Under the pieces are notes generated by a model. That model was given only the letters and a program-made list of their open reading frames with translations. It was not told the DNA's origin and made no database searches. A stretch of DNA of 64,000 bases from assembly GCF_000798815.1 (NCBI RefSeq), contig NZ_JTLD01000018.1, positions 1-64,000 on the forward strand, given 5' to 3'. Numbering within the stretch: position 1 is the stretch's first letter; each line of letters begins with the position of its first letter. Made by a program: the position numbers and the translations under genes. Positions 42,273 through 59,960 of the stretch are shown here, one piece after another. The DNA is from Alistipes sp. ZOR0009 (GTDB taxonomy: Bacteria > Bacteroidota > Bacteroidia > Bacteroidales > ZOR0009).

Positions 42273-42548
42273 CCTTTGTTCTTCTCTAGAAAGTTTCAAT
42301 TTAAGCCATGCAGATTTACCCTTAGTTGCCAAACGAAGAGGTGCAAGATAATTTTTTAAAACATATTTTCACGCAACAAGTATTCTAATACAATATTTAT
42401 TCCCCCGAAATAACTCAAACAAAACATTAAATAACAAAGCATTAAATTAAAAAGATACTTACTTATGATACACTTAAATTTAAAACCAAGTTAGCTAACA
42501 AACATATAAATCGAATAAAAATGCATCTACAGTTTTCAGAACGAAAAA

Positions 42549-42578
42549 AGCACCTACAAATTTCTTTGTAAGTGCTTC
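42549..42578 (-). terminator. terminator of a tRNA gene
   Basis: AAGCACCTACAAATTTC and TTTGTAAGTGCTT form a near-perfect stem (42549-42578); on the minus strand a T-run follows. It lies 12 bases beyond the 3' end of the tRNA fragment, so it is the original terminator of the tRNA gene. Confidence 0.75.
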
Positions 42579-42590
42579 ATTTTCTTTGGG

Positions 42591-42634
42591 TGGGCCCAGC
42601 AGGGCTTGAACCTGCGACCCCCTGATTATGAGTC
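42591..42634 (-). other. tRNA-Met(CAT) 3' fragment, likely attachment site
   Basis: Minus strand: acceptor 3' strand TGGGCCC plus discriminator A, T-arm GCAGG-TTCAAGC-CCTGC, variable loop, the 3' half of the anticodon stem (TCAGG) and the loop CTCATAA with CAT anticodon. Pairing and homology stop at the anticodon stem 5' side, and no D-arm or 5' acceptor follows. Such 3' tRNA halves mark the boundary of an integrated element. The chromosome side is to the left and the element to the right. Confidence 0.7.
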
Positions 42635-44133: not shown

Positions 44134-44464
44134 ATATCTCTTTGTAAAAATTTCATTAACAACTATTGACACCTGAATCAGCTTTGAATCACTTGCAAAA
44201 ATATTTTTCAATCATACTATCACTCATGTGTTTGATTTGTTTGAAATAAAATTACGAAAAACGATCAGGATAATTTTTATTTTTTACATCTAACCAATTA
44301 GATCGTAAATCAACCAGATGCACATTTGACATAAAATAACAGCACAAACAATTCACACAATATTTTTTTTGCAAAAAATTATCAATGCAATTTCAAATTG
44401 AACCATAAAAATTATTATAACATATAAATATGCAAACTATGTTGATTACTTTTTCCAGTATCAA

Positions 44465-45172
44465 TTATTCGATTAGACATGAAATTTCCTCAGCAATATT
44501 ATCAGGTAATTCTATACTTGCACTAAATATTTCTTTGAAATGATCGATCCCCCAAGTATTTCCTTTGTGATAAATATAAATATACAACTGAGGCATATTA
44601 TCAATTGTCGTTAATGCATTTTGCTCTAAAAGATAGTTTATTACACAAGTATCCTCTCCCATTGGCAAATCAGCATAAGGATTCTCTTGTATTACTTCTT
44701 TTTTACACAGTATACTTCCTTCCCATGTCCTTTTGTTCGATATATAAGCTTTATTATTACATGAATCAAATACAATCCATCGTGATAGTACGCAAGCAAT
44801 TCGATTATTTGACAAAATGTGATTTACTTGAACTTCTATCCGATCTGGGCTATACCAATCATCATCATCCCATTGACAGATGTATTCGCCGTCTGCAGCA
44901 TTTACACTTAGATTTCTAAGCGTACCAAGTGTGTTTTTTACAAAACCAGAATGTACTTTTACAATTTTTAGAATATCACTAATTACCATATTATCAACGA
45001 ATTCACAAGTCGTCATATCAGAATCTTCATAGACAATAATTAATTGTTTGTTTTTATAAGTTTGATTATTAAAACACTTAATAACTCTCTCTAACATAAG
45101 TGGATTATTATGTGTCACACATAAACAAGAAACCAACGGAAGGTAATCCGGGTTGTTGTCTCTTCTATTCAT
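44465..45172 (-). CDS. GT2-family glycosyltransferase
   Basis: A 235-residue protein. N-terminal LVSCLCVTHNNPLMLERVIKC is the standard start of GT-A family 2 enzymes. The nucleotide-binding Asp is in VYEDSDMTT and the metal-binding motif is QWDDDDW (about residue 115). The C-terminus is short with no membrane helix, so it acts in the cytosol. It is encoded divergently from the 45265 gene with a 92-bp shared promoter region. The substrate is unknown: peptide, or an envelope glycan. Confidence 0.88.
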   Translation of the reverse strand: MNRRDNNPDYLPLVSCLCVTHNNPLMLERVIKCFNNQTYKNKQLIIVYEDSDMTTCEFVDNMVISDILKIVKVHSGFVKNTLGTLRNLSVNAADGEYICQWDDDDWYSPDRIEVQVNHILSNNRIACVLSRWIVFDSCNNKAYISNKRTWEGSILCKKEVIQENPYADLPMGEDTCVINYLLEQNALTTIDNMPQLYIYIYHKGNTWGIDHFKEIFSASIELPDNIAEEISCLIE

Positions 45173-45264: not shown

Positions 45265-46866
45265 ATGTATTGCAATTTTAAAACTCCAATATTGATATTG
45301 GTTAATCCATTCATAGATAATATTATTGAGATAATCGACATTATCCAAATGGTAAAACCAAAAAAAATGTATTTGGCTATTAAAAAACATAAGAATATAA
45401 AAACATCAAAATCAGATTTATTATCCAATATAGAAAATGAAATTAATTGGGATTGCCAACTTCATAGGTTTTACTATTCTGATCACGTAGAATATAATCA
45501 AATAATGATGTGTTCTATTAAACATTTTTTTGAAAATGAATCAGAAGGAATTATTTTAGACTTTTATTTTAAAACTAGTAAAAAAGTAACAATAGACCAT
45601 TTCAAATACTGCTCTATATTACTTCAAAAATACAGTACAGATGAACGAATTGGTCATATAACATGTGATGATTTTTTAAAGAGAAAAAACGGATCTGATT
45701 CATATTTTTTCTCAAAAATTTTGCATACGTCCTTTATATGGGCCAGTTGGCGACGAGTATGGGAACACATTGACAGTCAAATTTTTGATTACGTAACATT
45801 TCAAAAAATGTCTATATCTCAAAAAATCTCCATATCCAAACCATTTGATTTTTATTGGAATAATCTAAACTTAAAACCAGATAAATATAACAATGAATCC
45901 TGGAAGTCTATATATGAATACACAAACTTAATCAATAATAGATTAAGCATTATCCCTACTTATGGATTATTTAAATCAAACAAACACTCAAAGGAAAATA
46001 TAGATATTATTCACCCTAAATTTATTGTAGATGACTACATTTTAGACTTAAATTATCAGGAATTAAAATATAACATTTCTACGATTACAAACAACTATCC
46101 AGATGGCTACTCATTTATTAAAAATAAATTATTATCATTTTCAAATAAAATCGTAGATCAATTAATTATACCAAAAATCATTCACCAAGTTTATGTAAAT
46201 CAAGATGGACCGCCTCCATTCTTTAAAAGAATAGCAACCACATGGCAAAAAAAACATCCAGAATGGAAATATATTTTTTGGGATGAAAAAAAAATAAACC
46301 ATTTATTGGAGTCTGAATTTCCTGATTTCATTCCATTTTATGAGTCATTACCCTATGATATTCAACGCTGGGATACAATACGCTATTTGATATTGTATAA
46401 ATTAGGGGGAGTATATGTAGATATGGATTATGAATGTATTGATCCTATAGATGTATTATTAGTAAACTCTTCTTGTTGCATGGCTTTAGAGCCAAGTATT
46501 AACGCAAAAAAGCACAATAAAAAACAAATAATAAGCAATGCTTTTATGGCTTCTATACCTCAACACAGTTTTATTAAAAACATTATCAATGAAATAATTC
46601 AAAACATTAATACTATCTTTTCAAAAAAAGATATAACTATGCATATTCTAGAATCTACAGGACCTTTTATGCTTTCGAGATTATATGAAAAATACAAACA
46701 AAAAAATGATATTACTCTTTTATCAGCGGATCTAGTAACACCTTTAACAATGAATGAAGTTAACTTATTATTCAGCGGAGGGGCAAACGAGGAAATAAGG
46801 AATAAAATAAACAATTCATTTGCGATTCATTACTTTTGTGGGTCATGGATATCTAAATTCAGGTAA
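45265..46866 (+). CDS. two-domain glycosyltransferase (HlpA-like plus GT32)
   Basis: A 533-residue protein. Residues 1-290 resemble the HlpA-like nucleotide-diphosphosugar transferase group (HTSFIWASWRRVWEHID is the recognisable stretch), though its DXD is unclear. From about 303 a GT32 (Gly_transf_sug) domain begins with IPKIIHQVYVNQDG and has the conserved LGGVYVDMDYECI acidic motif, DIQRWDTIRY, and a closing HYFCGSW. The GT32 half appears catalytically complete. Fusions of these two domains suggest sequential sugar transfers. The gene is the first of the plus-strand run leading into the lanthipeptide genes. Confidence 0.8.
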   Translation: MYCNFKTPILILVNPFIDNIIEIIDIIQMVKPKKMYLAIKKHKNIKTSKSDLLSNIENEINWDCQLHRFYYSDHVEYNQIMMCSIKHFFENESEGIILDFYFKTSKKVTIDHFKYCSILLQKYSTDERIGHITCDDFLKRKNGSDSYFFSKILHTSFIWASWRRVWEHIDSQIFDYVTFQKMSISQKISISKPFDFYWNNLNLKPDKYNNESWKSIYEYTNLINNRLSIIPTYGLFKSNKHSKENIDIIHPKFIVDDYILDLNYQELKYNISTITNNYPDGYSFIKNKLLSFSNKIVDQLIIPKIIHQVYVNQDGPPPFFKRIATTWQKKHPEWKYIFWDEKKINHLLESEFPDFIPFYESLPYDIQRWDTIRYLILYKLGGVYVDMDYECIDPIDVLLVNSSCCMALEPSINAKKHNKKQIISNAFMASIPQHSFIKNIINEIIQNINTIFSKKDITMHILESTGPFMLSRLYEKYKQKNDITLLSADLVTPLTMNEVNLLFSGGANEEIRNKINNSFAIHYFCGSWISKFR

Positions 46867-46965
46867 AAACTCTAAAATCACCATATTTTAAACCACTCAA
46901 TAAATGTTTTTTTTACATTATAATTCTGTATTTTATTCATCTGACTTTTTTATGTATTTACAAAA

Positions 46966-47997
46966 ATGAATCAATATATTCAATCTTTTAACAACCAGCT
47001 TCTTATAGCCCTAAATCAAAAAGAAATGACATTAGGATTAGCTGATGGAAAAATGGGAATTTGCATCTATTTTTATGTATTAAGTAGATACGAACAGGAT
47101 AAAGAATATAAGATTATTGGTGACAATATTTTAGATGATATTTTTCAAAAAATAGACAACATTTCCTCGATTGATATTAAAACTGGACTTTCTGGTATAG
47201 GATTAGGAATAAACTATTTAATTAAAAATAAATATGTCGAAGGCAATGTCAATAATATAATTAAAAGCATTGACGATACAGTCTATAAAACTATTTCAGA
47301 TCAATGTAATTTAAAATTAATGGACAGCACTTCTTTAATTCACGCAATACACTATTTATGCACTAGATTAAAAGAAAAAAAACTTACTAAAGAAAATGAA
47401 TTTATTTTCAAAGAGATTACAATTAGCACATTAAATTACATGTACGAAAGACTAGACTTAACATCTTACGAAGAATCTTTACCATACACAACCGACTATT
47501 TCTTACCTCAGTTATTCTATGTATTTAGCGAGATATACGATATAAATTTTTACAATTACCGTTTAATTAAAATAATCGAAGAAATAAGCAATAAAATACT
47601 ATCAATAATACCTATTTTACATTGCAACAAATTACTTTTATTATGGGGAATGAATTCATTACAGAGGCGTATAAACAATAATAAATTTGAAAAGCACATC
47701 ACATTAATTAAAAATCAAATTGATATTAATGAAATTTTAGACAATGAACTAAAGGCAAAAAACATTTTTTTTAACAATGGATATGCAAGTATATACCCTT
47801 TATTGTATTTAGTAAAAGACAAAATAGCAAAAAGTGAAATGGACATCTACAAAAACTGCATTTATACCAAATTATCATCACCAGATATTTTAGAATTCCA
47901 CATAAACAAATCAAAAGATCACAATAGCAATCGTTTTTTTTACAGTGGACTTTGCGGGACAATATTGATGTCTTATTTTATAAAAAAAACAATATAA
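46966..47997 (+). CDS. degenerate LanC-like protein without zinc ligands
   Basis: A 343-residue protein. The repeated helix-hairpin pattern with small-residue turns (LADGKMGICIYFY, TGLSGIGLGINYL, FYSGLCGTILMSYF) is that of the LanC (alpha/alpha)6 toroid. The three zinc ligands of cyclases (WCYG and CHG motifs) are absent, as is the catalytic IAHG. It is therefore unlikely to form thioether rings. It might bind the precursor leader, partner one of the glycosyltransferases, or act in immunity. The true LanC of the cluster is at 50794. It is followed 9 bp later by a glycosyltransferase gene. Confidence 0.65.
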   Translation: MNQYIQSFNNQLLIALNQKEMTLGLADGKMGICIYFYVLSRYEQDKEYKIIGDNILDDIFQKIDNISSIDIKTGLSGIGLGINYLIKNKYVEGNVNNIIKSIDDTVYKTISDQCNLKLMDSTSLIHAIHYLCTRLKEKKLTKENEFIFKEITISTLNYMYERLDLTSYEESLPYTTDYFLPQLFYVFSEIYDINFYNYRLIKIIEEISNKILSIIPILHCNKLLLLWGMNSLQRRINNNKFEKHITLIKNQIDINEILDNELKAKNIFFNNGYASIYPLLYLVKDKIAKSEMDIYKNCIYTKLSSPDILEFHINKSKDHNSNRFFYSGLCGTILMSYFIKKTI

Positions 47998-48006
47998 TAT
48001 CTAATT

Positions 48007-48777
48007 ATGAAAGCAGATTTATCTGACACAACATTTTTAATATTGATTCGATTAGATTCAATACATCGTTTAGAAAACATTCTAACTATAGTAAAACAGT
48101 TAAAACACAGCTTTAGTACCAATATAATTGTACGCGAAGCTGATAGTTATAATAACGGTATATTAAAATACTTACTAAAAAAACATATATCTTACCAATT
48201 TGTTGAAGATAAAGATCCTGTCTTGTATAAAACGAAGCACATTAATCAAATGATTCAGCAAATAAATACTCCATTTATTGCATTGTGGGATGCAGATATT
48301 GTTGTCGATAAAAAAATAATTATAGAATGTATAGAGAAATTAAGAATGAAAGAAGTTGATGTAGCATATCCTTACAATGGAATTTGTTATGATATATTAG
48401 GAGGGATAAGAACTTTGTTTCTAAAAAAAACTAATATAAATATCCTATACAGACATATAGATAAATTGAATTTTCTATATCATCCCCCATTATATGGAGG
48501 TGCTGTTTTACTAAACAGATCCAAATTTATCAAAGCAGGGATGGAGAATGAAAAACATTATGGATGGGGATGCGATGACTTTGACAGATATGAACGATTT
48601 AAAATATTAGAATATAATATTTTTAGATCAAACAAATGCCTATTTCACTTATATCATTCAAGAGAAAAAAACAGTTATTTCAGGAATGAAAATTCTAGAA
48701 ATATATCAGTAAGTGAACGATACAAAAATCACAACTCTTCAAAATTTGAATTATTGAAAAATGATCAAAACAAATAA
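48007..48777 (+). CDS. glycosyltransferase, GT2/GT7-like (GT-A)
   Basis: A 256-residue protein. FLILIRLDSIHRLENILTIV starts a GT-A fold, LWDADIVVD is the DXD motif, and YGGAVLLNRSKF with GWGCDDFDRYER is the galactosyltransferase-type C-terminal acceptor loop with a catalytic Asp pair. It is soluble. It overlaps the following ABC ATPase gene by 17 bases, which suggests coupled translation and links sugar transfer to the lanthipeptide operon. Confidence 0.85.
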   Translation: MKADLSDTTFLILIRLDSIHRLENILTIVKQLKHSFSTNIIVREADSYNNGILKYLLKKHISYQFVEDKDPVLYKTKHINQMIQQINTPFIALWDADIVVDKKIIIECIEKLRMKEVDVAYPYNGICYDILGGIRTLFLKKTNINILYRHIDKLNFLYHPPLYGGAVLLNRSKFIKAGMENEKHYGWGCDDFDRYERFKILEYNIFRSNKCLFHLYHSREKNSYFRNENSRNISVSERYKNHNSSKFELLKNDQNK

Positions 48778-49648
48778 CCTTAAATTTAAATATAAAGACA
48801 AAACAATTCTAAGAGGAATTAATTTAAATGTTCCTATCGGATCTGTTTATGGGTTTATTGGAAAAAATGGAGAAGGTAAAACAACTACGCTCAAATTATT
48901 GTTAGGATTATTACCAACACCAAAGAATACTATTTATTATGAAAATAAACTATTTGAAGAGAATAAAGTCAAAATATTATCAAATGTAGGAAATCTAATA
49001 GAAACCCCTTGTTATTATGACAATTTAACAGCTTTTGAAAACTTGAAATATCTAAATTACATTCATAAATGTGGTATAGATAGAATCTATTATTGTCTAG
49101 AACTTGTAAAGTTAATGGAAGTAAAAGATAAAAAAGTAAAATATTTTTCCACAGGAATGAAACAGCGATTGGGAATAGCTATGGCTATTTTCCACAATCC
49201 TCAAGTTTTATATTTAGATGAACCATTAAATGGATTAGATCCAGAGGGAATACATGAAATAAGAAACATCATAACAAACCTTAAAGATTTGCGTAAAACT
49301 ATAGTTATTTCAAGTCATATCTTAAACGAACTAGACAAGGTTTGCACACATATAGGAATATTGCATAATGGAAATTTATCTTTTCAAGGTGAAATTAAAG
49401 ATTTACACAAAATAGGCAAAAGAATTATACAAATAAAATCAAGCAATACAAAAGTTGCTATAGATATATGCAAAAACAATAATTTCACCGTCTTAAATCA
49501 TTGCAATGAAAATATAGAAATACAAATCAACAACGACAAAGAGTTCAACAAAATTGTAAGATTAATTTTGGATTACAACATAGACATATACAATATTAAA
49601 TCCAGTGATTTTGACCTCGAAATGGCTTATATGTCAACAATTAATTGA
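48761..49648 (+). CDS. lantibiotic immunity ABC transporter ATP-binding protein (LanF-like)
   Basis: A 295-residue protein. Walker A is GKNGEGKTT (about residues 35-43), the ABC signature is YFSTGMKQRLGIA, and Walker B is VLYLDEPLNGLDP. The C-terminal about 80 residues form the extra domain seen in LanF/BcrA-type ATPases. It overlaps the preceding GT gene and is followed 6 bp later by its permease. It most likely removes the mature lanthipeptide from the producer's membrane; an unrelated export role cannot be excluded. Confidence 0.92.
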   Translation: MIKTNNLKFKYKDKTILRGINLNVPIGSVYGFIGKNGEGKTTTLKLLLGLLPTPKNTIYYENKLFEENKVKILSNVGNLIETPCYYDNLTAFENLKYLNYIHKCGIDRIYYCLELVKLMEVKDKKVKYFSTGMKQRLGIAMAIFHNPQVLYLDEPLNGLDPEGIHEIRNIITNLKDLRKTIVISSHILNELDKVCTHIGILHNGNLSFQGEIKDLHKIGKRIIQIKSSNTKVAIDICKNNNFTVLNHCNENIEIQINNDKEFNKIVRLILDYNIDIYNIKSSDFDLEMAYMSTIN

Positions 49649-49654
49649 TTAATT

Positions 49655-50404
49655 ATGTACAATTTGATTAAATCTGAAATTTTTAAAAACAAAACCAACT
49701 ATGGTTTTTTATTAATGATTACATTTCCAGTTATCATATCATTATTCGTCACGATTTTAAGTTTAGTAAATATTAATTCAATAATCCCGACGAATTTAAA
49801 TCCATGGGTATTTATTCTTGGTCGATATATTTTAAACATTTATAGTTTGCTATACCCAATAATAATAGCAATATTTGTTCATTCTGTTTTTGATATCGAG
49901 AGAAAAAACAATAATTTCAAACTATTACTTACTATGCCAATTAGTCGCATAAACATATTTGTAGTAAAAATAATATATTTAATTTTAGTTTTATATATAT
50001 CTATTTTTACCTCATACCTATTTTTTTATATTTCAGGATACACATTACATTTTATTGAAGCAGACTTTTGCTTTACAAAGTTTAATTCGAATTATATTAT
50101 AATTTTATATTTTTCAAAACTACTTGCATCTCTTACAATAATTATCCTAATACAATTCTTATTAAGTCTTATATTCAAAAGTTTTGTATTTCCAGTTAGT
50201 TTTTGCAGTTTCATTACCCTTTTGTCAATCATGTTTCATAAAAATGAATGGGTAGAAATAATACCCTATAATTTTCCGCATATGTGCCTTTGCGATTTTA
50301 TTTCAGGATCAAGAAACATTAGCATTTTCAACCTTGTAAATTTAATGTATATTATGATTGTTGTTATTACATGTAATATGCTTATAAAAAGAATTTCTGT
50401 CTAA
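49655..50404 (+). CDS. ABC-2 type permease (LanE/G-like immunity subunit)
   Basis: A 249-residue protein with about six predicted membrane helices and the FELL-like ERKNNNFKLLLTMPISR cytoplasmic loop that contacts the ATPase. It forms the membrane half of the transporter with the 48761 ATPase. Its stop codon overlaps a TAAATTTG promoter-like box for the precursor gene. Confidence 0.88.
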   Translation: MYNLIKSEIFKNKTNYGFLLMITFPVIISLFVTILSLVNINSIIPTNLNPWVFILGRYILNIYSLLYPIIIAIFVHSVFDIERKNNNFKLLLTMPISRINIFVVKIIYLILVLYISIFTSYLFFYISGYTLHFIEADFCFTKFNSNYIIILYFSKLLASLTIIILIQFLLSLIFKSFVFPVSFCSFITLLSIMFHKNEWVEIIPYNFPHMCLCDFISGSRNISIFNLVNLMYIMIVVITCNMLIKRISV

Positions 50405-50409
50405 ATTTG
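50402..50409 (+). promoter_or_regulatory. Bacteroidota -7 box for the precursor gene
   Basis: TAAATTTG matches the TANNTTTG consensus and lies 75 bases before the ATG at 50484. The -33 region lacks an obvious TTG. An imperfect palindrome (about 50427-50456) between box and start could be an operator. Confidence 0.4.
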
Positions 50410-50483
50410 ATAATCTAATATAGCGTATAATGATTGATGTATTATTCATCATTATATATTTCTTTAATTTAATTTTTATCACA

Positions 50484-50702
50484 ATGAAAAAACTTAAAAA
50501 GTTAAGACTTTCTAAAGAAACGATTGCCTCTTTAGATGAAAATGTTTTAGATTCTGTAAAAGGAGGCTGGAGTGGAGGGTGTACAGATGGTTGTACAGGA
50601 ACTACTTCTTGGCTTTGTACTAATTTTAATTGTACAAAAAGAGATTGTACTGCAGATTGTGGAACTGTTAGTTGCAGAACTTACGCTGTTTGCACCTTAT
50701 AA
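50484..50702 (+). CDS. lanA: class I lanthipeptide precursor with GG leader
   Basis: A 72-residue peptide. The ATG at 50484 is chosen because it starts the typical Bacteroidota leader (KKLKKLRLSKETIASLDEN, then VLDSVKGG), with an L-x-L-x-K-x-T-I-x-x-L motif and GG at 27-28; upstream residues from 50430 are a hydrophobic non-conserved stretch. The core after GG is 44 residues with eight Cys and 13 Ser/Thr. Core Cys positions are 5, 9, 17, 22, 27, 31, 36 and 42, and each has a Ser/Thr three or four residues before it (for example S2-C5, T6-C9, T18-C22, T28-C31). Six Cys are immediately followed by Thr. LanB would dehydrate, LanC cyclise, and the C39 transporter cleave after GG. Confidence 0.92.
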   Translation: MKKLKKLRLSKETIASLDENVLDSVKGGWSGGCTDGCTGTTSWLCTNFNCTKRDCTADCGTVSCRTYAVCTL

Positions 50703-50729
50703 TTATTTTTAATAAAAGAAAATAATTAT
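50699..50729 (+). promoter_or_regulatory. perfect AT-rich hairpin straddling the precursor stop
   Basis: ATAATTATTTT (50699-50709) and AAAATAATTAT (50719-50729) form a perfect 11-bp stem that includes the TAA stop. It may protect the short precursor mRNA from 3' decay. Confidence 0.5.
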
Positions 50730-50750
50730 AAATATTACAAATTTTAATTT

Positions 50751-50779
50751 GGGAGAATGATTATTAACATCATTCTCCC
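50751..50779 (+). terminator. attenuating terminator between precursor and modification genes
   Basis: GGGAGAATGAT (50751-50761) and ATCATTCTCCC (50769-50779) form a perfect 11-bp stem with a 7-base loop, followed by TCTAATAAAA. Position between the precursor and LanC genes is the classical site for partial termination that gives more precursor than enzyme. Confidence 0.7.
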
Positions 50780-50793
50780 TCTAATAAAACATA

Positions 50794-51981
50794 ATGAAAG
50801 ATAGTAAATGTAATCAGTTAATTTCATCAATCGCAGATAGAATATCATTATCTAAAGCATTTGGTGATATTGGATTATTATCTGGAAGCATGGGAGAGAT
50901 CATATTTCTCTACGAATATTCTAAGATTGATAAAAAATATTTAGAATATGCTGAAAAAAAATTCGATCATATGTACGAGTCGATATATAATGGAAATATT
51001 TTTCATTCATATTGTTCTGGATTACCAGGTATTTGTGTAGGAATATCTTATCTTCAAGAAAAAGGAATTTTAGACAAAAACAGTTTTATTTCTGATGAAA
51101 TTGATTCTTACATTGAATTAAAATTGAACAAATGTTTCAATGATAAGAATTATGATTTTTTACATGGTGCCATTGGGATAGGGTTGTACTTCCTTGATAG
51201 GTTCACATCAAATAAGACTAAGTATGGTAAAATACTAAAAGACATCATCAACTTTATCTATATCAACGCAATATTTAGCAGAGAGGGATATGTAAGATGG
51301 TCGAGTAATAAGTTCGGCGATAACAACTCTGATATTTCTATCGCTCATGGTAGCGCAAGCATTATTATATTTTTGTGTAAACTATTGCCCATTTTAGATA
51401 CTACTGATTATTATAGAGCAAAAAAATTAATTGTCGGTACAGTAAACTTTACACTATCCTTAGAGCAAGACACAAATATTTTTAACTCATATTTTCCTTA
51501 CAGTTATAATCTTGCAACAAAAGAAAAAGAAAATAGTAGGTTAGCATGGTGTTATGGTGATTTAGGGATATCGTATTCACTCCTTGAAGCTGCAACTGTT
51601 CTTAATAATAATCAATGGCATAAAAAAGCTATGGAAATTTTTAATTATTCAATATCAAGAACAGAACTAGAAAAGAATTTTATTCATGATGCATCACTAT
51701 GTCATGGCACCATTGGGATTGCTCTAATATTTTATAAATTATACATTAGAACAAATGACATGAAGTTTTTACATATAACTCAATATTGGATTAAAAAAAC
51801 ATTAGAATTTTGTAATCCAAACGAAAGTATTGATTCTTTCAAGTTGTATTTTGAAATAAATGAAAATAAATGGAGTAATAGAACTGGAATATTGGAAGGG
51901 TTAGCAGGAATTGGGCTAACTTTAAATTCGTATAATAATCGCGACAACGCAGATTGGAGTAAATTTCTTCTATTATATTAA
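50794..51981 (+). CDS. lanC: lanthionine synthetase C family cyclase (LanC)
   Basis: A 395-residue protein with the LanC toroid repeats. Zinc ligands are Cys253 (AWCYGDLG), Cys303 and His304 (SLCHGTIG). His185 in ISIAHGSAS matches the catalytic His of NisC. It couples dehydrated Ser/Thr in the precursor to Cys thiols to make (methyl)lanthionine. It follows the precursor by 91 bp with a hairpin between, and precedes LanB by 26 bp. Confidence 0.95.
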   Translation: MKDSKCNQLISSIADRISLSKAFGDIGLLSGSMGEIIFLYEYSKIDKKYLEYAEKKFDHMYESIYNGNIFHSYCSGLPGICVGISYLQEKGILDKNSFISDEIDSYIELKLNKCFNDKNYDFLHGAIGIGLYFLDRFTSNKTKYGKILKDIINFIYINAIFSREGYVRWSSNKFGDNNSDISIAHGSASIIIFLCKLLPILDTTDYYRAKKLIVGTVNFTLSLEQDTNIFNSYFPYSYNLATKEKENSRLAWCYGDLGISYSLLEAATVLNNNQWHKKAMEIFNYSISRTELEKNFIHDASLCHGTIGIALIFYKLYIRTNDMKFLHITQYWIKKTLEFCNPNESIDSFKLYFEINENKWSNRTGILEGLAGIGLTLNSYNNRDNADWSKFLLLY

Positions 51982-52007
51982 AATACTATTAATAATAAGT
52001 ATATATT

Positions 52008-54194
52008 ATGAGTTATAAAGTTTTTCCTCATTTCGTAATCCGCACACCTTTATTACCCTTTAATTTACTTGACAGCATATTGATGGATTATAAAAAGATG
52101 ATGCAACTAACATCTAATCCATTGATTCAAGAGGCTATTTACATTGCCTCTGCTGATCTATTCAGTGAACTTCAAAAATTGTTGAAAGATGAAATTAATG
52201 ATAAAAAAAATAAAACTAGAATAATACATTCTTTAGTAAGATATATAAGTAGAATGTCAACAAGATGCACACCTTTCGGGCTATTTGCAGGATGTAGTAT
52301 TGGGAGTATTAGCGATTCAACTTCAATCTGTTTTAGTGGTACCATCAATAAAACTGTACGTCTAGATATGCAATATCTAGGATGTCTTTATAATTATTTA
52401 GTAAATGATCCAAATGTTAAAAATAAAATTAAATATTATCCTAATGATAGTATATATCCTATAGATAAGAAAATTCGTTATATCGAGTGTTTAGATTTTA
52501 ATTCAAAAAAAAACTACAAAATAGCAGAAATCAAAAATAGTATATATATAAAATCGATTCTTAAAAAAGCAAAAAAAGGAGAATTTATTGACAACTTAGC
52601 ATTATCTATCGTCTCAGATGATATTTCATTTCCAGAGGCATTCGCATTTATTGAGGAATTAGTCAATTCTCAGGTATTAATTGGAGAACTATCCAGTTCT
52701 ATTACTGGAGAAGATTATTTTGATCGTTTAATCAGTCTACTTGAAAAAATAAATTATGACAAATTGGCACTAGAATCTCTAAAAGAGATTAGATGTCACT
52801 TAAAATACATTACTCATAATATAGGAAATATTGAGCAGTATTATAAACTTGAAAAGCAAATTCATAAATTAAACATTAATTATAAAGAAAAATCATTCTT
52901 TCAAGTTGATATGATAAAATCTACAACTTCTGCGACTTTAGGAGAAAATATAATTAAAGAACTTCAACAGACAATGGAATTTCTAAATAAGATAACCACA
53001 TTGGGAGAAAATCATGAATTAATTAGTTTTAAAAACGAGTTTTACAGTCGATATGGAGACAAAGAAGTTCCTTTAATGGATGCTTTAGACCCCGAATTAG
53101 GATTAGGATATCCATTAAAATCAACCAAACTAGAAGTTTCTAGTTTCTTAAGTGATTTCCATTTTAATGACAAAAAAAATCCATCGACAATTTATTTGAG
53201 CGCATTTCAAAATATTTTATTAAAAAAAGCACTAGCGTCTATTTCCTTAAATAGTAGAGAAATTATACTAACTGATGATGATATAAAAGATTTTAATGCA
53301 GATTGGACTGATTTACCTTTGACAATTTATTCATTAATTGAAGTTATTCAGTCTGATCCAAATGAGTTGTTAATTAAGGCAAATTATTTTGGGGGAAGTT
53401 CTGGAGCAAATTTATTGTCGAGGTTTGCTCATACCGATGATAAAATTAAAGATTTTATAAAAAATATTATTTCTAAAGAAAATGAATTTAATTCCGATGC
53501 AATATCTGCAGAAATAGTTCATCTTCCTGAATCTAGATTAGGAAATGTATTATTTCGTCCTCATTTAAGAGATTATGAATTAGTGTATATGTCTATTTCT
53601 GACTTACCTAGTGAGAATATAATTCAAACATCTGATTTATTAGTATCTATAAGGAATGAAAAATTGCACTTACGTTCCCAGAAAAAAGGAAAAGAAATAA
53701 TCCCTTTTTTAACAACCGCGCATTTTTATCAAAATAGTTCTAATCCAGTTTATCGTTTCTTATGCGATATGCAGACACAGTCTAAGAGATCTTCCATTTT
53801 TTTTAGTTGGGGGGATCTAGAATATCTTTTGCCTTACCTACCTCGTATAAAATACAATAACACTATTCTATCAGTTGCTACTTGGATTGTTGAAATTAAG
53901 GATATTAATTATTTATTTCAAATTGAAGATGATGATTTATTGATTAAAAGTATCGAAAAATGGAGAGAAAAACTATTAATTCCGACAAATGTATTATTAT
54001 CAGATGGAGATAACTATTTGTATGTTAACTGGACTATTCCTTTAAGCATAAGATCATTATTTACAATAATAAAAAAAAGAAATACTGTTGTTTTTAAAGA
54101 ATTGATATTTGATCATAATAATAATGTTGCTTCAGACAGTAGCAATGGAAAGTATTTCAATGAATGTATTGTTGTTTTTCATAAAAAAAAATAA
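52008..54194 (+). CDS. lanB: lanthipeptide dehydratase, glutamylation part (LanB N-terminal protein)
   Basis: A 728-residue protein corresponding to the N-terminal domain of LanB. SRMSTRCTPFGLFAGCSIG is the family signature; LRDYELVYM and PESRLGNVLFRPH lie in the region that contacts tRNA and glutamate. It uses glutamyl-tRNA to esterify Ser/Thr of the precursor, and the partner encoded next removes glutamate. Full-length LanB of Gram-positives (about 1000 residues) is one chain; here it is split. The stop is one base before the start of the partner, so translation is coupled. Confidence 0.93.
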   Translation: MSYKVFPHFVIRTPLLPFNLLDSILMDYKKMMQLTSNPLIQEAIYIASADLFSELQKLLKDEINDKKNKTRIIHSLVRYISRMSTRCTPFGLFAGCSIGSISDSTSICFSGTINKTVRLDMQYLGCLYNYLVNDPNVKNKIKYYPNDSIYPIDKKIRYIECLDFNSKKNYKIAEIKNSIYIKSILKKAKKGEFIDNLALSIVSDDISFPEAFAFIEELVNSQVLIGELSSSITGEDYFDRLISLLEKINYDKLALESLKEIRCHLKYITHNIGNIEQYYKLEKQIHKLNINYKEKSFFQVDMIKSTTSATLGENIIKELQQTMEFLNKITTLGENHELISFKNEFYSRYGDKEVPLMDALDPELGLGYPLKSTKLEVSSFLSDFHFNDKKNPSTIYLSAFQNILLKKALASISLNSREIILTDDDIKDFNADWTDLPLTIYSLIEVIQSDPNELLIKANYFGGSSGANLLSRFAHTDDKIKDFIKNIISKENEFNSDAISAEIVHLPESRLGNVLFRPHLRDYELVYMSISDLPSENIIQTSDLLVSIRNEKLHLRSQKKGKEIIPFLTTAHFYQNSSNPVYRFLCDMQTQSKRSSIFFSWGDLEYLLPYLPRIKYNNTILSVATWIVEIKDINYLFQIEDDDLLIKSIEKWREKLLIPTNVLLSDGDNYLYVNWTIPLSIRSLFTIIKKRNTVVFKELIFDHNNNVASDSSNGKYFNECIVVFHKKK

Positions 54195-54195
54195 A

Positions 54196-55086
54196 ATGAA
54201 AGAACTTCAAAGAAATTTTATCCCAGGAAGTAAGTGGATATATATAAAACTTTACACAGGAAGTCATACTGCCGATAAGATTCTGGTCAAAGATATAATG
54301 TTTATTATTAGCAAACTTAAAAAAGCAAAACTCATTAACAAATGGTATTTTATTCGTTATTCAGATCCAGATTTTCACATCAGATTGCGAATATTAGCTA
54401 ATAATGATTTTGATTTTGCAAGTATAGTTAATATCGCTTTCACAAAACTAGAAAAATTAACACAAAGTGGATTAATATGGAAAGTACAGTTTGACACATA
54501 TAATAGAGAACTAGAGCGATATGGAAAAATATTAATCGAAGAATCAGAAACTATATTTTATTATGACAGTGAATGTATATTGTCAATTATTAAAGATATA
54601 ATTAATTGTAATAATGAAAATTACAGATGGATGATATCTTTAAAATTAATAGATATTTTTCTTTCAGATTTAAAACTAAATATTGATGAAAAATATATAA
54701 TTTTAAATGAACTATGCGATTCATTTAAACGTGAATTCAACATTGACAATTACAATAAAAAAATATTAAGTAATAAATTTAGGGAACATAGATGCGTACT
54801 AGAATCTATATTAGACAATTCTATTGAAGATGAAAATTTCAAAAAACTATATTTGCATATTAAAAAGAAAACATCAAAAACAAGTCCTGTGCTATATAAA
54901 TTAAAGTCTGATTTACAAAACAAGATGCACAATATAGCACTAAATGATTTAATAAAAAGCCATATCCATATGACTTTAAATCGTCTTTTTAGTTCTAATA
55001 ATCGTTTGTATGAAATGGTTATTTATGATTTTATAAATAAATTCTACAAAAGCAAAATTGTCAGAAATAAGAATAAATTTATTTAG
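54196..55086 (+). CDS. lanthipeptide elimination protein (SpaB C-terminal, thiopeptide-type)
   Basis: 296 residues from the ATG at 54196, right after the LanB stop; an upstream frame from 54109 is inside LanB. The segment WIYIKLYTGSHTADKILV and the conserved WYFIRYSDPDFHIRLRI are the SpaB_C/thiopeptide biosynthesis signature. It carries out glutamate elimination to give dehydroalanine/dehydrobutyrine. It completes the split dehydratase. A 308-bp gap with a promoter-like box follows before the exporter. Confidence 0.93.
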   Translation: MKELQRNFIPGSKWIYIKLYTGSHTADKILVKDIMFIISKLKKAKLINKWYFIRYSDPDFHIRLRILANNDFDFASIVNIAFTKLEKLTQSGLIWKVQFDTYNRELERYGKILIEESETIFYYDSECILSIIKDIINCNNENYRWMISLKLIDIFLSDLKLNIDEKYIILNELCDSFKREFNIDNYNKKILSNKFREHRCVLESILDNSIEDENFKKLYLHIKKKTSKTSPVLYKLKSDLQNKMHNIALNDLIKSHIHMTLNRLFSSNNRLYEMVIYDFINKFYKSKIVRNKNKFI

Positions 55087-55295
55087 CATGATAGTTGTGT
55101 TGTAAAACAATATCGCTCCATAATTAATTTTATGGATAGACTTACAACATTAATGATGCATGAACAACAGCAAACAATTCCTATAATTATCTGTAATGAT
55201 ATTTTTCATTGATATTTATAAGATTAAAAAAATCAATTTTACCGTTACATTTATTTTAACAAACAAGTTTTTACCGAATCCCAAAGTCATCAATT

Positions 55296-55303
55296 TAGAT
55301 TTG
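55296..55303 (+). promoter_or_regulatory. Bacteroidota -7 box upstream of exporter gene
   Basis: TAGATTTG matches TANNTTTG exactly and lies 92 bases before the ATG of the C39 exporter gene at 55395. A T-rich GTTTTTACC at 55268-55276 is a weak -33 candidate. It implies separate transcription of the export genes. Confidence 0.5.
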
Positions 55304-55394
55304 CAAGCACATTACTATTAAATCAAAAAGAGACTTTTAACAAACAACTATTTTAACACAAGCATCAGTGTAAAACCTATTTTTTTTAACAGAC

Positions 55395-57602
55395 ATGAAA
55401 ATATTCCCAAATTATCAGCAGCTAGATTCAATGGACTGTGGTCCCACTTGTTTGCGGATAATTGCTAAATATTATGGACGTTCTTTGTCAATGAAACTTT
55501 TAAGAGACAAATGTTTTATGACTAGAGAAGGTGTTTCTATGTTAGGCCTTTGCGAAGCTGCTGAAAGCATTGGTTTTCATACCAATGGCGTTAAAATAAC
55601 TTTTGATCAACTTTTTAATGAAAAAATATTTCCATGTATTTTACACTGGAATCAAAATCATTTTGTCGTATGCTATAAAATAAAAAAAAAACACAAAGAA
55701 ATTTATGAAATAAAAATTTCAGATCCTTTAGGAGAACGATATTCATTATCAAAATCAGAATTTTTAAAATGTTGGGCAAACTCCAAATTTGAAGGAAAAG
55801 ATATCGGAATTGTTTTATTTTTAAAACCTACTCCTGAATTCTATAAAGAGAATGATATATCAGGTAAAAATGAAGCAACATTTATTTATTACCTACGTTA
55901 CCTGCGTCCATATAGATCTCAATTAATACAAATCACTGTTGGTCTTATCATTGGAAGTATATTGTCATTTATTCTCCCATTTCTTACTCAATCTATAGTT
56001 GATCAGGGTATTTCAAATGGTGATCTAGGCTTTATATCATTAGTTTTAATATCTCAACTATTTCTATTTGCAACACAATTAATTATAGAATTTATTCGTA
56101 ATTGGATAACATTGCATATAAATAGTCGAATAAGCATCTCATTGATTTCTGATTTTTTAAATAAATTAATGAAACTTCCAATTAGTTTTTTCAATACAAA
56201 AAACATTGGAGATATAATGCAACGAATAGAAGACAATTCTCGAATAAAATCTTTCTTAACTGGATCGAGTCTTTCTGTTTTATTTTCTTTTGCTAATTTT
56301 ATTATATTTGCGACTATATTAAGTTATTATAGCATAATAATATTAGGAGTTTTTTTTACAGGAAATGCACTATACATCATATGGGTCATTTTATTTATGC
56401 ATTATCGCAGAAAACTGGATGCAGTACGATTTTCTCAAGCGTCAGCAGAGCAAGACAATTTAGTTCAGTTGATAAGTGGAATGCAAGAAATTAAACTTAA
56501 TAATTGCGAAAAACAACAGCGATGGAAGTGGGAAGGAATACAAATAAATCTTTTCAATATAAGCATAAAAGGACTCGCTTTGGAACAATATCAACAAATT
56601 GGTTCTATATTTTTTAGCCAAACAGCTTATATTATTATTTCATTTATATCAGCAAGGAAAGTTGTTGAAGGAACTTTAACTCTTGGAATGATGATGTCAA
56701 TTAGTTATATTATTGGACAATTATCAGGACCTATTGGACAATTAATTAGTTTTATACAATCAGCACAAGATGCTAAATTAAGTTTAGAGCGTTTACGTGA
56801 AATCCATAATAAAGAAGACGAAGAACAAAAAATTGAATATAAAACAAATAACATCCCGCCTAGTAAAGATATATCTATTGACAATTTATTTTTCAGTTAT
56901 GACAATTCAGATAGAAATTATGTCTTAAAAGGAATAAACTTAGTAATTCCAGAAAACAAAGTAACAGCGATTGTCGGTACCAGTGGAAGCGGAAAAACGA
57001 CTTTGATAAAACTTTTGTTGGCAATTTATTTTCCATCTAAAGGAAAAATAAAAATAGATAATGTATCTTTAAGTGATTTAAATCCTCATCTTTGGAGACT
57101 AAAATCCGGCGCTGTCATGCAAGATGGATTTATATTTTCAGATACAATTGCTAATAATATAGCATTAGGACAAGATATTATTGATAAAGAAAAATTATTA
57201 CATTCTGTAGAGGTTGCTAATATAAAAGAATTTATTGAATCACTCCCTCTAAAATATAATACAAAAATTGGAATGTCAGGAAATGGGATAAGTCAAGGAC
57301 AACGCCAACGGCTCTTAATTGCAAGAGCAGTATACAAGAATCCCGATTTTTTATTCTTTGATGAAGCAACTAACTCATTAGATGCTAAGAACGAGAAATG
57401 CATCTTAGATAATTTAAATTTATTTTATAAAGGAAAAACAGTTGTCATTGTTGCTCATCGTCTGAGTACAGTGCAAAATGCTGATAAAATAATAGTAATG
57501 GACAACGGACTGATAATAGAAGAAGGAACTCATAATCAACTAATTAACAACAGAAGCACATATTACTATTTAGTTCATAATCAACTACAACTTGGTAAAT
57601 AG
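55395..57602 (+). CDS. lanT: C39 peptidase ABC transporter (leader-cleaving exporter)
   Basis: A 735-residue protein. The N-terminal C39 domain has catalytic Cys15 (DSMDCGPTC), His89 (WNQNHFVV) and Asp110 (ISDPLG). Six membrane helices follow (about 165-440), then the ATPase with Walker A GTSGSGKTT, signature ISQGQRQR, and Walker B FLFFDEATNSLD. It cuts the precursor after the double Gly and exports it. The HlyD adaptor gene begins 10 bases after its stop; an outer-membrane channel of TolC type is not in the window. Confidence 0.95.
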   Translation: MKIFPNYQQLDSMDCGPTCLRIIAKYYGRSLSMKLLRDKCFMTREGVSMLGLCEAAESIGFHTNGVKITFDQLFNEKIFPCILHWNQNHFVVCYKIKKKHKEIYEIKISDPLGERYSLSKSEFLKCWANSKFEGKDIGIVLFLKPTPEFYKENDISGKNEATFIYYLRYLRPYRSQLIQITVGLIIGSILSFILPFLTQSIVDQGISNGDLGFISLVLISQLFLFATQLIIEFIRNWITLHINSRISISLISDFLNKLMKLPISFFNTKNIGDIMQRIEDNSRIKSFLTGSSLSVLFSFANFIIFATILSYYSIIILGVFFTGNALYIIWVILFMHYRRKLDAVRFSQASAEQDNLVQLISGMQEIKLNNCEKQQRWKWEGIQINLFNISIKGLALEQYQQIGSIFFSQTAYIIISFISARKVVEGTLTLGMMMSISYIIGQLSGPIGQLISFIQSAQDAKLSLERLREIHNKEDEEQKIEYKTNNIPPSKDISIDNLFFSYDNSDRNYVLKGINLVIPENKVTAIVGTSGSGKTTLIKLLLAIYFPSKGKIKIDNVSLSDLNPHLWRLKSGAVMQDGFIFSDTIANNIALGQDIIDKEKLLHSVEVANIKEFIESLPLKYNTKIGMSGNGISQGQRQRLLIARAVYKNPDFLFFDEATNSLDAKNEKCILDNLNLFYKGKTVVIVAHRLSTVQNADKIIVMDNGLIIEEGTHNQLINNRSTYYYLVHNQLQLGK

Positions 57603-57612
57603 GAAAGTATCA

Positions 57613-58917
57613 ATGGAAGACAAAGAAATAAAGGGCACAGATTCCACAGAAGATTTTAACAGGGAAGAATTGCAAAATATTATAGGAAGTATTCCATCTT
57701 CGATATTACGAAGAGGAATTACTCTTATTGCTCTAATTGTTATCTCTATTATTGTTGGGAGCGCAGTATTTAAATATCCTGATATAATATCGACTTCGAT
57801 GACGCTTACGAGCATGAATCCATCTATTGCACTAACGGCAAAAGTTTCTGGACGATTATTAGATGTTAGAGTTGTTGATAAGCAATATGTAAAAAAAGGA
57901 GAGTATCTATCAATAATAGAAAATTATGCAACAATAAAAGATGTTATATTTATAAAAGAATATTTAGATTTACTAAATCAAAATATCAACAAATTCAACC
58001 TCCCTCCTGTAGACTTAAATCTAGGATCGATGCAGTCATTATATTCAAATCTATATCACTCTATAAGTGAATATTATGAATTCAAACGGCTCCGATACCA
58101 TAATCAAAAAATATCTTATATTAATAACAAAATTCATCTGTATGAAGATTTATACAAAAATGCAATTCAACAAAAAGAAAATATTTATGAACAATTTAAT
58201 TTAAAGAAAAATAAGCATATAAGAGATTCCATCTTGAATAATCAAGGGGTAATATCTTCTGAAGAGTTAGAAAATAGTAAATATGAACTGCTCCAGAATA
58301 GTGTTTCTATTTCAAATATGCAGTCGACAATTCAAAATGCGGCAATACAAATATCCCAAATGAAAGAAAATATTTTTGAAACAAAATGTGATAATATCGA
58401 GAAGAATAATCTGTTATTAAATAAGATTAAAATACATTCGGCGGAACTACGTTCTGAAATTAAATTATGGGAGCAAAATTATGTATTTATTTCTCCTATA
58501 AATGGAAATGTTAATTTTACAAATTGCTGGGTTAAAAATAAGCAAGTAACTTCAGGTGATTTAATTTTTAATATTATACCTGATAAAAGAAAATCAATAA
58601 TAGGAGAAAGTCAAATATACCTATCACGCTCTGGTAAAGTAAAAATTGGCCAAAAAGTTAATGTTAGATTTTATAATTTTCCTGATAATGAATATGGAAT
58701 AGTCAGAGGGGTTGTTAATAGTATTTCTATTGTTCCAACAAAAAATAAATTCTATATTGTAAAAATAATATTTCCAAATGGATTAAAGACTTCATACAAT
58801 ATAGATTTACCGTTTCTTCCAGAAATGAGAGCAAATGCAGACATAATAATTAATGATCTATCATTACTTGAAAGAATTCTTATGCCTCTAAAAAGAATAT
58901 GGACAGAACGCATGTAA
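57613..58917 (+). CDS. HlyD-family secretion adaptor
   Basis: 434 residues from the ATG at 57613; the longer frame starts with TTG. One membrane helix (GITLIALIVISIIVGSAVF) is followed by a biotinyl-lipoyl-like half-motif (KVSGRLLDVRVVDKQYVKKG), a helical hairpin (about 110-270) and the second half (FISPINGNVNF), then a beta-barrel domain. It links the inner-membrane C39 transporter to an outer-membrane channel for peptide export. Confidence 0.9.
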   Translation: MEDKEIKGTDSTEDFNREELQNIIGSIPSSILRRGITLIALIVISIIVGSAVFKYPDIISTSMTLTSMNPSIALTAKVSGRLLDVRVVDKQYVKKGEYLSIIENYATIKDVIFIKEYLDLLNQNINKFNLPPVDLNLGSMQSLYSNLYHSISEYYEFKRLRYHNQKISYINNKIHLYEDLYKNAIQQKENIYEQFNLKKNKHIRDSILNNQGVISSEELENSKYELLQNSVSISNMQSTIQNAAIQISQMKENIFETKCDNIEKNNLLLNKIKIHSAELRSEIKLWEQNYVFISPINGNVNFTNCWVKNKQVTSGDLIFNIIPDKRKSIIGESQIYLSRSGKVKIGQKVNVRFYNFPDNEYGIVRGVVNSISIVPTKNKFYIVKIIFPNGLKTSYNIDLPFLPEMRANADIIINDLSLLERILMPLKRIWTERM

Positions 58918-59683: not shown

Positions 59684-59960
59684 ACAAATATATTAACAAT
59701 AAAAAAACGCCTAAAAAAACATGCAAAAAAAAACTTACTAATATTAAACTAATTTTAGATATTCCATTATTAGCATAAAAATAGTATTCATTTTTATGTG
59801 ACATTTCTTTATACAAAAAACCGATAATTGGCCCAGCACTCATGGATGCTATTAACATAACAATGAAACTCAAAGTAACAATTGACACTGCGACTGAAAA
59901 CACCCAAGATAATACTAATGTGCTTTTATGGAATTCCAAGTAAAATCTTAACTTATCCAT
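59667..59960 (-). CDS. small membrane protein, putative ABC partner
   Basis: 97 residues from the ATG at 59960. Two hydrophobic segments (about 16-40 and 68-92) suggest two membrane helices with a short loop (MSHKNEYYFYANNGI). It overlaps the ATPase gene by 17 bases. Too small to be a full ABC-2 permease, so it may oligomerise. I do not recognise the family. Confidence 0.6.
   Translation of the reverse strand: MDKLRFYLEFHKSTLVLSWVFSVAVSIVTLSFIVMLIASMSAGPIIGFLYKEMSHKNEYYFYANNGISKISLILVSFFLHVFLGVFLLLIYLYEKHS

What the first reader, a model, noticed from the sequence alone, without database searches (positions are those of the whole stretch)
45265..58917. Class I lanthipeptide cluster with split LanB and glycosyltransferases on an AT-rich island
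The run contains precursor, LanC, split LanB, C39 exporter, HlyD and LanFE-type immunity genes. Interleaved in the same plus-strand run are a GT32 fusion, a degenerate LanC and a GT2/GT7-like enzyme, with two more GT genes divergently upstream. Glycosylated lanthipeptides are rare. The idea that the product is glycosylated is inference.
Basis: partly seen in the sequence, partly recalled or inferred. Interest (0 to 1): 0.88.

Follow-up and report, generated by a model that had tools for sequence, protein, structure and literature searches.

The report
Lanthipeptide cluster with peptide-glycosylation module
A bacterium, probably of the Bacteroidota, carries on a mobile island the genes for a ring-containing secreted peptide together with sugar-attaching enzymes and a disarmed copy of the ring-forming enzyme; this sugar-enzyme pair recurs beside peptide exporters in many Bacteroidota, so the peptide is probably sugar-coated.

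Summary
An AT-rich island (GC about 0.26; window flanks about 0.42) carries a complete class I lanthipeptide operon: GG-leader precursor, zinc-type LanC, split LanB, C39 exporter, HlyD and an immunity-like ABC pair. In the same plus-strand run are a GT32 fusion, a LanC without zinc ligands ("dLanC") and a GT7-type transferase; two more GTs are divergent.

Split LanB and GG leader are ordinary for Bacteroidota. The dLanC-GT pair is not. A search with the GT7 alone gave 44 loci; 37 have a zinc-less dLanC adjacent or fused (35 of 42 without the two seed loci), 26 a C39 exporter within 8 kb. dLanC is naturally fused to GTs (GT2-dLanC; GT2-dLanC-GT7). Its model is a LanC fold (Z about 25 to MadC and NisC), not the endoglucanase-like protein a 2023 survey suggested. 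In nine Cyclobacteriaceae loci the partner is a disulfide-type VKOR protein, a glycocin-like layout; here it is LanB/LanC.

Best reading: dLanC helps GTs recognise a GG-leader peptide; here the substrate is the lanthipeptide. Sugar on the product is inferred. The combination with LanB is rare: three other cases seen, one only neighbouring.

The parts
42540..42634 (-). 95-bp exact copy of the 3' half of tRNA-Met plus 49 bp downstream; likely attachment site and left edge of the island
   Evidence: Identical to G000:C53:18863-18957, where ARAGORN finds the intact tRNA-Met
42889..44211 (-). Glycosyltransferase-like protein: GT25-like C part, N part unclear
   Evidence: PF01755 E 3.9e-4, under cut-off; homologue in Hoylesella timonensis L158, in the dLanC-GT7-C39-HlyD locus, has GT4 and weak GT25 matches
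44465..45172 (-). GT2 glycosyltransferase, QWDDDDW motif
   Evidence: PF00535 E 2.2e-15; motif
45265..46866 (+). GT32-type glycosyltransferase with about 300 unassigned N-terminal residues; VDMD motif
   Evidence: PF04488 E 4.4e-17 at residues 321-401; motif
46966..47997 (+). dLanC: LanC-fold protein without the zinc ligands
   Evidence: AF2 pLDDT 92.9; VIA Z 25.6 MadC, 25.5 NisC
48007..48777 (+). GT7-type glycosyltransferase with WDADI and GWG..D motifs; partner of dLanC
   Evidence: PF02709 E 3.6e-7; family alignment; 44 loci with relatives
48761..49648 (+). LanF-like ABC ATPase (probable immunity)
   Evidence: TIGR03740 E 1.3e-64, 218 bits against cut-off 309.75
49655..50404 (+). LanE/G-like ABC-2 permease (probable immunity)
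   Evidence: PF12730 2e-15; TIGR03733 1.2e-4, under cut-off
50484..50702 (+). Precursor LanA, 72 aa; 28-aa leader ending in GG, 44-aa core with 8 Cys, 10 Thr, 3 Ser
   Evidence: NF038153 E 7.4e-8, 32.4 bits over cut-off 22; TIGR04149 25 bits, cut-off 25; core composition; start
50794..51981 (+). LanC cyclase with zinc motif (CYGD, CHG)
   Evidence: PF05147 1.1e-46; motifs; MadC E 1.4e-17
52008..54194 (+). LanB glutamylation part (Lant_dehydr_N)
   Evidence: PF04738 7.9e-137; NisB E 9.8e-27
54196..55086 (+). LanB elimination part (Lant_dehydr_C)
   Evidence: PF14028 8.5e-61; TIGR03891 4.3e-62; start
55395..57602 (+). C39 peptidase-containing ABC exporter; DCGP, HW..H and DP motifs present
   Evidence: PF03412 1.4e-30; motifs
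57613..58917 (+). HlyD-type periplasmic adaptor (alternative start TTG 57592)
   Evidence: PF13437 3.9e-10; TIGR01843 4.5e-26, under cut-off; start
60730..61956 (+). Tyrosine integrase right of the AT-rich stretch
   Evidence: PF00589 1.5e-16 with PF13102 and PF17293

Best explanation
A mobile class I lanthipeptide cluster with a built-in peptide-glycosylation module. LanB (two polypeptides) dehydrates Ser/Thr of the 44-residue core and the zinc LanC closes thioether rings with its eight cysteines. dLanC, a LanC fold that lost its zinc site, binds the GG-leader peptide and serves as the specificity subunit of the neighbouring glycosyltransferases: GT7 first, with GT32 (and perhaps the divergent GTs) adding further sugars. 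The C39 exporter cuts after GG and, with HlyD, secretes the peptide; the LanF/LanE-like pair protects the producer. Shown by sequence or model: gene content, order, motifs, the LanC fold of dLanC, loss of zinc ligands, recurrence and fusion of dLanC with GTs, co-occurrence with C39 exporters. Inferred: dehydration and cyclisation here, that dLanC binds the peptide, which residue bears sugar, which sugar, and the order of steps.
For: Complete lanthipeptide operon. Test with the GT7 alignment alone: 44 loci, 37 with dLanC within 350 bp or fused, one more at 989 bp; C39 within 8 kb in 26, HlyD in 24; two of the 44 (L128, L144) are seeds of the alignment, leaving 35 of 42. Fusions: GT2-dLanC in a LanB operon (L028/L085) and GT2-dLanC-GT7 in Bacteroides fragilis Q1F2 (L161). 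LanB operons or neighbourhoods with the module: L085 and L121 (same strand), L161 (adjacent, opposite strand). By my profiles GTs lie within 3 kb of 14 of 18 LanC-type genes without zinc motif and 0 of 24 with it; those GT profiles were seeded partly from dLanC neighbours, but a Pfam scan of 52 neighbours of canonical LanC genes also shows no GT family among the 25 listed of 65. Model: LanC fold, Z 25.6 and 25.5, best row outside the LanC family 14.1. The GT7 part resembles chondroitin polymerase, polypeptide GalNAc-transferase and B4GALT1. VKOR proteins in 9 of the 10 proteins sent from GT7-dLanC loci give a glycocin-like setting. GT7 and dLanC distances correlate 0.78 against 0.59 for GT7 and C39 in the 21 sets with all four genes.
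Against: No product data. Of 21 other LanB-bearing genomes of the order only one (G133) has dLanC or GT in the fetched LanB stretch. GT7 occurs without a found dLanC in L146, L147, L148 (contig edge) and L152; L162 is a 55-residue scrap. Over all 37 sets with both genes the GT7-dLanC correlation is 0.62, and dLanC-C39 in 22 sets is 0.73, so co-inheritance with the exporter is about as good. The domain arrangement in the model of the L161 fusion is unreliable (pTM 0.48), so no contact between dLanC and GT is shown. The leader also just reaches a leader family of radical SAM peptides. No acceptor residue was identified. Many loci are close relatives (Algoriphagus).
Confidence: 0.6

Rival explanations
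1. The GTs and dLanC change the producer's own surface (LPS, capsule or a surface peptide) and so give immunity to the lanthipeptide; the peptide itself carries no sugar.
For: GT2, GT4, GT25 and GT32 families are usual in envelope loci (general knowledge; family matches); LanF/E-like genes follow GT7 directly in the same run.
Against: The GT7-dLanC pair occurs mostly in loci where no LanB was found, often next to C39 exporters, and in 13 of 44 with GG-leader precursor-like ORFs by eye; dLanC has a peptide-modifying fold. A surface role would not explain fusion of a LanC fold to GTs.
Confidence: 0.15
2. dLanC and GT act on a different peptide, encoded elsewhere or lost, and were joined to the lanthipeptide operon by recombination of AT-rich mobile DNA.
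For: In most other LanB stretches of the order the module was not found; the island looks mobile; in B. fragilis L161 the GT2-dLanC-GT7 gene and the LanB operon are on opposite strands.
Against: In three cases (window, L085, L121) module, LanB and exporter genes share one strand; I saw only one GG-leader precursor by eye among the window ORFs of this run.
Confidence: 0.15
3. Zinc-less LanC-like proteins are endoglucanase-like carbohydrate enzymes unrelated to peptide modification (reading of PMC10352776).
For: They sit beside carbohydrate-active genes; passages of PMC10352776 say so for BGC3-5.
Against: The AF2 model matches MadC, NisC and LicM2 at Z about 25 against 14.1 or less for mannosidases, epimerases and lyases. 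The profile's best PDB matches are lanthipeptide synthetases and a cyclase. Among the neighbours sent to Pfam one by one I saw no glycoside hydrolase family.
Confidence: 0.05

Closest known systems
Pinensin-type class I lanthipeptides of Bacteroidota
   Same: Split LanB, LxLxK-type leader often ending in GG, C39 protease (PMC7268733, passages)
   Different: No zinc-less LanC or GT module is mentioned in the passages seen; the product here probably carries sugar
Glycocins (sublancin, glycocin F; cluster features recalled)
   Same: GG leader, C39 exporter, GT; Cyclobacteriaceae relatives add VKOR/thioredoxin-type proteins, like the disulfide partners of glycocins
   Different: GT is GT7/GT32-type with a LanC-fold partner; the window uses LanB/LanC; known glycocins come from Bacillota (PMC9576775, passages)
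Bacteroidales BGC3-BGC5 of PMC10352776
   Same: LanC-like proteins lacking the zinc triad in RiPP clusters near GTs or CAZymes
   Different: Those have radical SAM and lack LanB, and were read as endoglucanase-like; here LanB and a zinc LanC share the operon
NAI-112 and cacaoidin, glycosylated lanthipeptides (recalled; start of a cacaoidin abstract, a reference entry)
   Same: Sugar on a lanthipeptide
   Different: Actinobacterial and, as recalled, class III and class V; no dLanC-GT pair known to me

Membership tests
Class I lanthipeptide | Precursor with class I leader | tested here: met
   NF038153 over its cut-off
Class I lanthipeptide | LanB glutamylation and elimination domains | tested here: met
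   PF04738 and PF14028 on two adjacent genes
Class I lanthipeptide | LanC with zinc ligands | tested here: met
   CYGD and CHG
Class I lanthipeptide | Lanthionine in the product | not testable with these tools
   needs mass spectrometry
LanC cyclases (dLanC, 46966-47997) | LanC fold | tested here: met
   Z 25.6 to MadC
LanC cyclases (dLanC, 46966-47997) | Zinc-binding Cys/Cys-His motif | tested here: not met
   absent by eye in 12 of 12 dLanC rows; no CYGD, CHGD or CHG in 37 of 37 rows of A4
Glycocins | GG leader and C39 exporter with a peptide GT | tested here: inconclusive
   leader and exporter met; that a GT acts on the peptide is unproven
Glycocins | SunS-type S-glycosyltransferase | tested here: not met
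   no TIGR04195 match at E 0.1 for the four window GTs; a GT2 of L025 matches it weakly, E 5e-4
Glycosylated lanthipeptides | Sugar on the mature peptide | not testable with these tools
   needs product analysis

The most novel reading that the evidence does not exclude
The LanC fold has been repurposed, after loss of its zinc site, as a peptide-presenting specificity subunit of glycosyltransferases. The dLanC-GT7 pair defines a widespread, undescribed class of glycosylated RiPPs in Bacteroidota that combines with disulfide, radical SAM or LanB/LanC chemistry; the window is its lanthipeptide form.
Probability: 0.45. Interest if true: 0.85.

Novelty: new variant of a known kind. Interest (0 to 1): 0.7.

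Why it matters
Sugar-bearing lanthipeptides are few and, as recalled, actinobacterial. A compact cluster with all the parts offers a directly testable Bacteroidota case. More widely, it gives a function hypothesis for zinc-less LanC-like proteins seen in Bacteroidales RiPP clusters and set aside as carbohydrate enzymes: they would be substrate-recognition partners of glycosyltransferases, a new use of a well-studied enzyme fold. It also bears on a published statement that LanB was absent from 1,136 Bacteroidales genomes (PMC10352776, passages): a Bacteroides fragilis chromosome holds both LanB parts by my profiles (L161), and 22 of 295 genomes of the window's unnamed order (Bacteroidales presumed), the window's own included, match PF04738.

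Tried and rejected
Direct repeats of 13 bases or more pairing the left edge with the integrase side within the contig: one direct and one inverted AT-rich 13-mer only; the second copy of the attachment site is on contig C53. Empty-site proof by synteny: in G093 and G195 the gene upstream of tRNA-Met is conserved (71%) and no island ORF of 90 aa or more matches there at E 1e-8, but genes left of the island in the window have no match there either, so the left neighbour was not confirmed. Bacteroides-type promoter scan: 23 overlapping matches against a shuffle mean of 12.7, many of them shifted copies of one site; taken as no evidence. The genome-contig scan with dLanC alone found nothing. In one search a CxxxCxxC rule marked ORFs as 'rSAM?'; Pfam showed 8 proteins so marked or alike to be VKOR/C39-like and one VKOR, so I make no radical SAM counts from that rule; the one Pfam-confirmed radical SAM protein is L161:1-1035. 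The proteins were picked by that rule and by eye, not at random; the tenth, from Rhodohalobacter L129, matched nothing. (A2 profile, 20 of 395 class genomes) mixed dLanC with canonical LanC and was not used for counts. L085 and L086 (repeats of L028 and L034) and a 102-aa piece of L037 were dropped before the count; of the four zinc-less genes without GT, L071 and L112 score better as canonical LanC, the others are L025:14368-15402 and L029 (contig edge); the GT profiles were seeded partly from the same loci, hence the Pfam control, which lists only 25 of 65 families, so a GT family matched by a single neighbour could be hidden. In one search the GT2 profile was too weak (it missed the GT2 part of L085); one search repeated the check with a better one on 22 LanB stretches: GTs only in L085. 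In one search the LanBN flag of L142 is a weak partial match and is not counted. In the BLAST, LanA was given out of frame by one base, so that call says nothing about precursors. Foldseek and VIA lists say nothing about families not listed.
Full report
What is there. Left to right on the plus strand: a protein with a GT32 domain at residues 321-401 and about 300 unassigned N-terminal residues (45265-46866), a LanC-like protein under Pfam's cut-off (46966-47997), a GT7C-type transferase (48007-48777), a LanF-like ATPase and a LanE/G-like permease, the precursor (ATG at 50484), LanC, LanB in two genes, a C39 exporter and HlyD, ending at 58917. Two GTs lie divergently at 42889-44211 and 44465-45172. 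Genes in the plus run are close or overlapping, with the largest gap 308 bases, so an operon is likely. DxD-type motifs of the GT2, GT32 and GT7 proteins and the C39 motifs are intact. The core peptide (44 residues after GG) has 8 Cys, 10 Thr and 3 Ser, which allows several thioether rings and leaves hydroxyls free.

The island. GC drops from about 0.42 to about 0.26 between about 42.5 and 60.7 kb. At 42540-42634 lies an exact 95-bp copy of contig C53:18863-18957, whose first 46 bases are the 3' half of an intact tRNA-Met there. The 18-mer TGCACACGTTTTGCACAC occurs once in the window (42763, complement strand) and once in the C53 stretch searched (from 18963), each time on the side that would be inside an inserted element. 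Two sister genomes carry tRNA-Met with the same upstream gene, and no island ORF matches there; neither has a dLanC match. A tyrosine integrase lies at 60730-61956. I read the cluster as sitting at one end of an element inserted in tRNA-Met; the assembly does not close it, and that this integrase moves it is inferred.

What is ordinary. Split LanB, the LxLxK leader often ending in GG, and a C39 protease are known traits of Bacteroidota class I clusters (passages of PMC7268733). In my sample 17 of 20 fetched LanB neighbourhoods of the window's order have separate LanB-N and LanB-C genes (the others are fused, partly fused or a fragment). PF04738 occurs in 22 of 295 genomes of the order, own included. 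The order is unnamed; I presume Bacteroidales. LanB also occurs in B. fragilis Q1F2 by my profiles (L161), although passages of PMC10352776 report none in 1,136 Bacteroidales genomes.

The unusual part: dLanC and GTs. In an alignment of 12 dLanC and 8 canonical LanC sequences, all 8 canonical rows keep the zinc motifs and none of the 12 dLanC rows does (by eye); none of 37 dLanC rows of A4 has CYGD, CHGD or CHG. An AlphaFold2 model of the window's dLanC (37-sequence alignment, mean pLDDT 92.9) matches MadC (Z 25.6) and NisC (Z 25.5) over 317 and 313 residues; the best row outside the LanC family, a mannosidase, scores 14.1. So it is a LanC fold with a lost metal site.

Neighbours of dLanC. The first search (295 order genomes, 16 with a match, own included) gave loci in which zinc-less LanC-like genes sit beside GT2, GT4, GT7, a GT14/GT2-type or GT32-like genes; the neighbour in L029 had no Pfam match, and a second dLanC in L025 has none within 3 kb. 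As a test that did not use dLanC, I searched genome contigs with the GT7 alignment: 44 loci. In 37 of 44 a dLanC lies within 350 bp or in the same protein; two of these (L128, L144) are the contigs of alignment seeds, leaving 35 of 42. Of the other seven, L129 has it at 989 bp beyond a second GT7, L153 has a weak N-terminal match in the GT7 protein itself, L148 ends near the gene, L162 is a 55-residue scrap, and L146, L147 and L152 have none. C39 exporters lie within 8 kb in 26 and HlyD in 24 of 44. GG-leader precursor-like ORFs stand out by eye in 13 of 44 (a simple rule, certainly incomplete).

Control. By my profiles GTs lie within 3 kb of 14 of 18 zinc-less and 0 of 24 zinc-bearing LanC-type genes. 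These are not phylogenetically independent, the GT profiles were seeded partly from dLanC neighbours, and two of the four exceptions score as canonical LanC. Independent of those profiles, I sent 52 neighbours of 24 LanC genes that score as canonical to Pfam: 65 families matched, no GT family among the 25 listed, which include every family matched by two or more members.

Fusions. B. fragilis Q1F2 (L161) has a 678-aa GT2-dLanC-GT7 protein converging on a LanB/LanC/precursor operon; this gene may instead belong to the neighbouring cluster with radical SAM, GT4, GT7 and two more dLanC genes. L121 (Bacteroidales MAG) has a LanB-C end, a transglycosylase, an M15-like/dLanC protein, GT7, C39 and HlyD on one strand at a contig end. 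Fusion is good evidence that dLanC and GT act together.

A parallel. Of ten proteins sent from GT7-dLanC loci, nine (eight of them also with a C39-like domain), all from Cyclobacteriaceae (classification recalled from the record names), are VKOR proteins; the tenth, from Rhodohalobacter, matched nothing. GG-leader Cys-rich precursors lie in those loci too. Peptide GT, C39 exporter and disulfide enzymes is the layout of glycocin clusters (recalled). In the window the same GT module is paired with thioether chemistry. The GT7 part of the fusion model (pLDDT above 90 for most of it) matches chondroitin polymerase, polypeptide GalNAc-transferase and B4GALT1; B4GALT1 is retuned by a non-catalytic partner, alpha-lactalbumin (recalled), a fair analogy for dLanC.

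Mechanism proposed. dLanC binds the GG-leader peptide and presents it to GT7; GT32 and perhaps the divergent GTs extend or add sugars; LanB and LanC install rings; C39 cuts and exports. Homologues of the GT25-like gene (L158) and of GT32 (L127, L036) in dLanC clusters suggest that these too belong to the module. Peptide binding by dLanC, the sugar and the site are inferred.

Against. Of 21 other LanB-bearing genomes of the order only G133 has dLanC or GT genes in the LanB stretch fetched (22 stretches; several are short contigs), so the hybrid is rare and could be a recombination product. GT7-dLanC co-divergence is better than GT7-C39 in the 21 common sets (0.78 against 0.59) but not by much over dLanC-C39 (0.72), and is 0.62 over all 37 sets. 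The fusion model gives no reliable domain contacts (pTM 0.48). The leader also just reaches TIGR04149, a leader family of radical SAM peptides.

In print. Searches of the held library listed no paper that, from what I saw of it, describes the dLanC-GT pairing as a peptide-glycosylation module; I opened three. PMC10352776 (passages and section 13) noted zinc-less LanC-like proteins near CAZymes and read them as endoglucanase-like. PMC7268733 (passages) mentions glycosyltransferases only for class IV clusters. In PMC9576775 (passages) I saw glycocins from Bacillota and one Bacteroidota lanthipeptide listed without sugar. Most subscription papers are not in the library.

Verdict.

Noticed in passing
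window 42540-42634 and G000:C53:18863-18957: Exact 95-bp copy of the 3' half of tRNA-Met plus downstream bases, with the 18-mer TGCACACGTTTTGCACAC near each copy; probable ends of an integrative element that holds the cluster.
   Followed up: partly
window 59009-60002 (-): An ABC ATPase and a small membrane protein on the minus strand between HlyD and the integrase; possibly a second immunity or transport pair.
   Followed up: no
L161:11065-17359: Bacteroides fragilis Q1F2 carries LanB (both parts), zinc-type LanC, an S41-peptidase-like gene and a GG-leader precursor, contrary to a published report of no LanB in 1,136 Bacteroidales genomes.
   Followed up: partly
L123:7048-9081: GT7 joined to a DUF3405-like stretch and a methyltransferase-like domain (weak) in one 677-aa protein after dLanC (Tannerella MAG).
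   Followed up: no
L129:9207-10768: Two GT7 genes in tandem after C39, HlyD and dLanC in Rhodohalobacter sulfatireducens.
   Followed up: no
L131, L132, L135 and L136, downstream of GT7: A closely alike GG-leader precursor family (core begins GSGSGPSSYC or GSGSGPSAYC) after GT7 in Algoriphagus; a good candidate substrate for the module.
   Followed up: no
L025:14368-15402 and L161:4261-6321: Additional zinc-less LanC-like genes in the same clusters, so a cluster can carry two or three.
   Followed up: no
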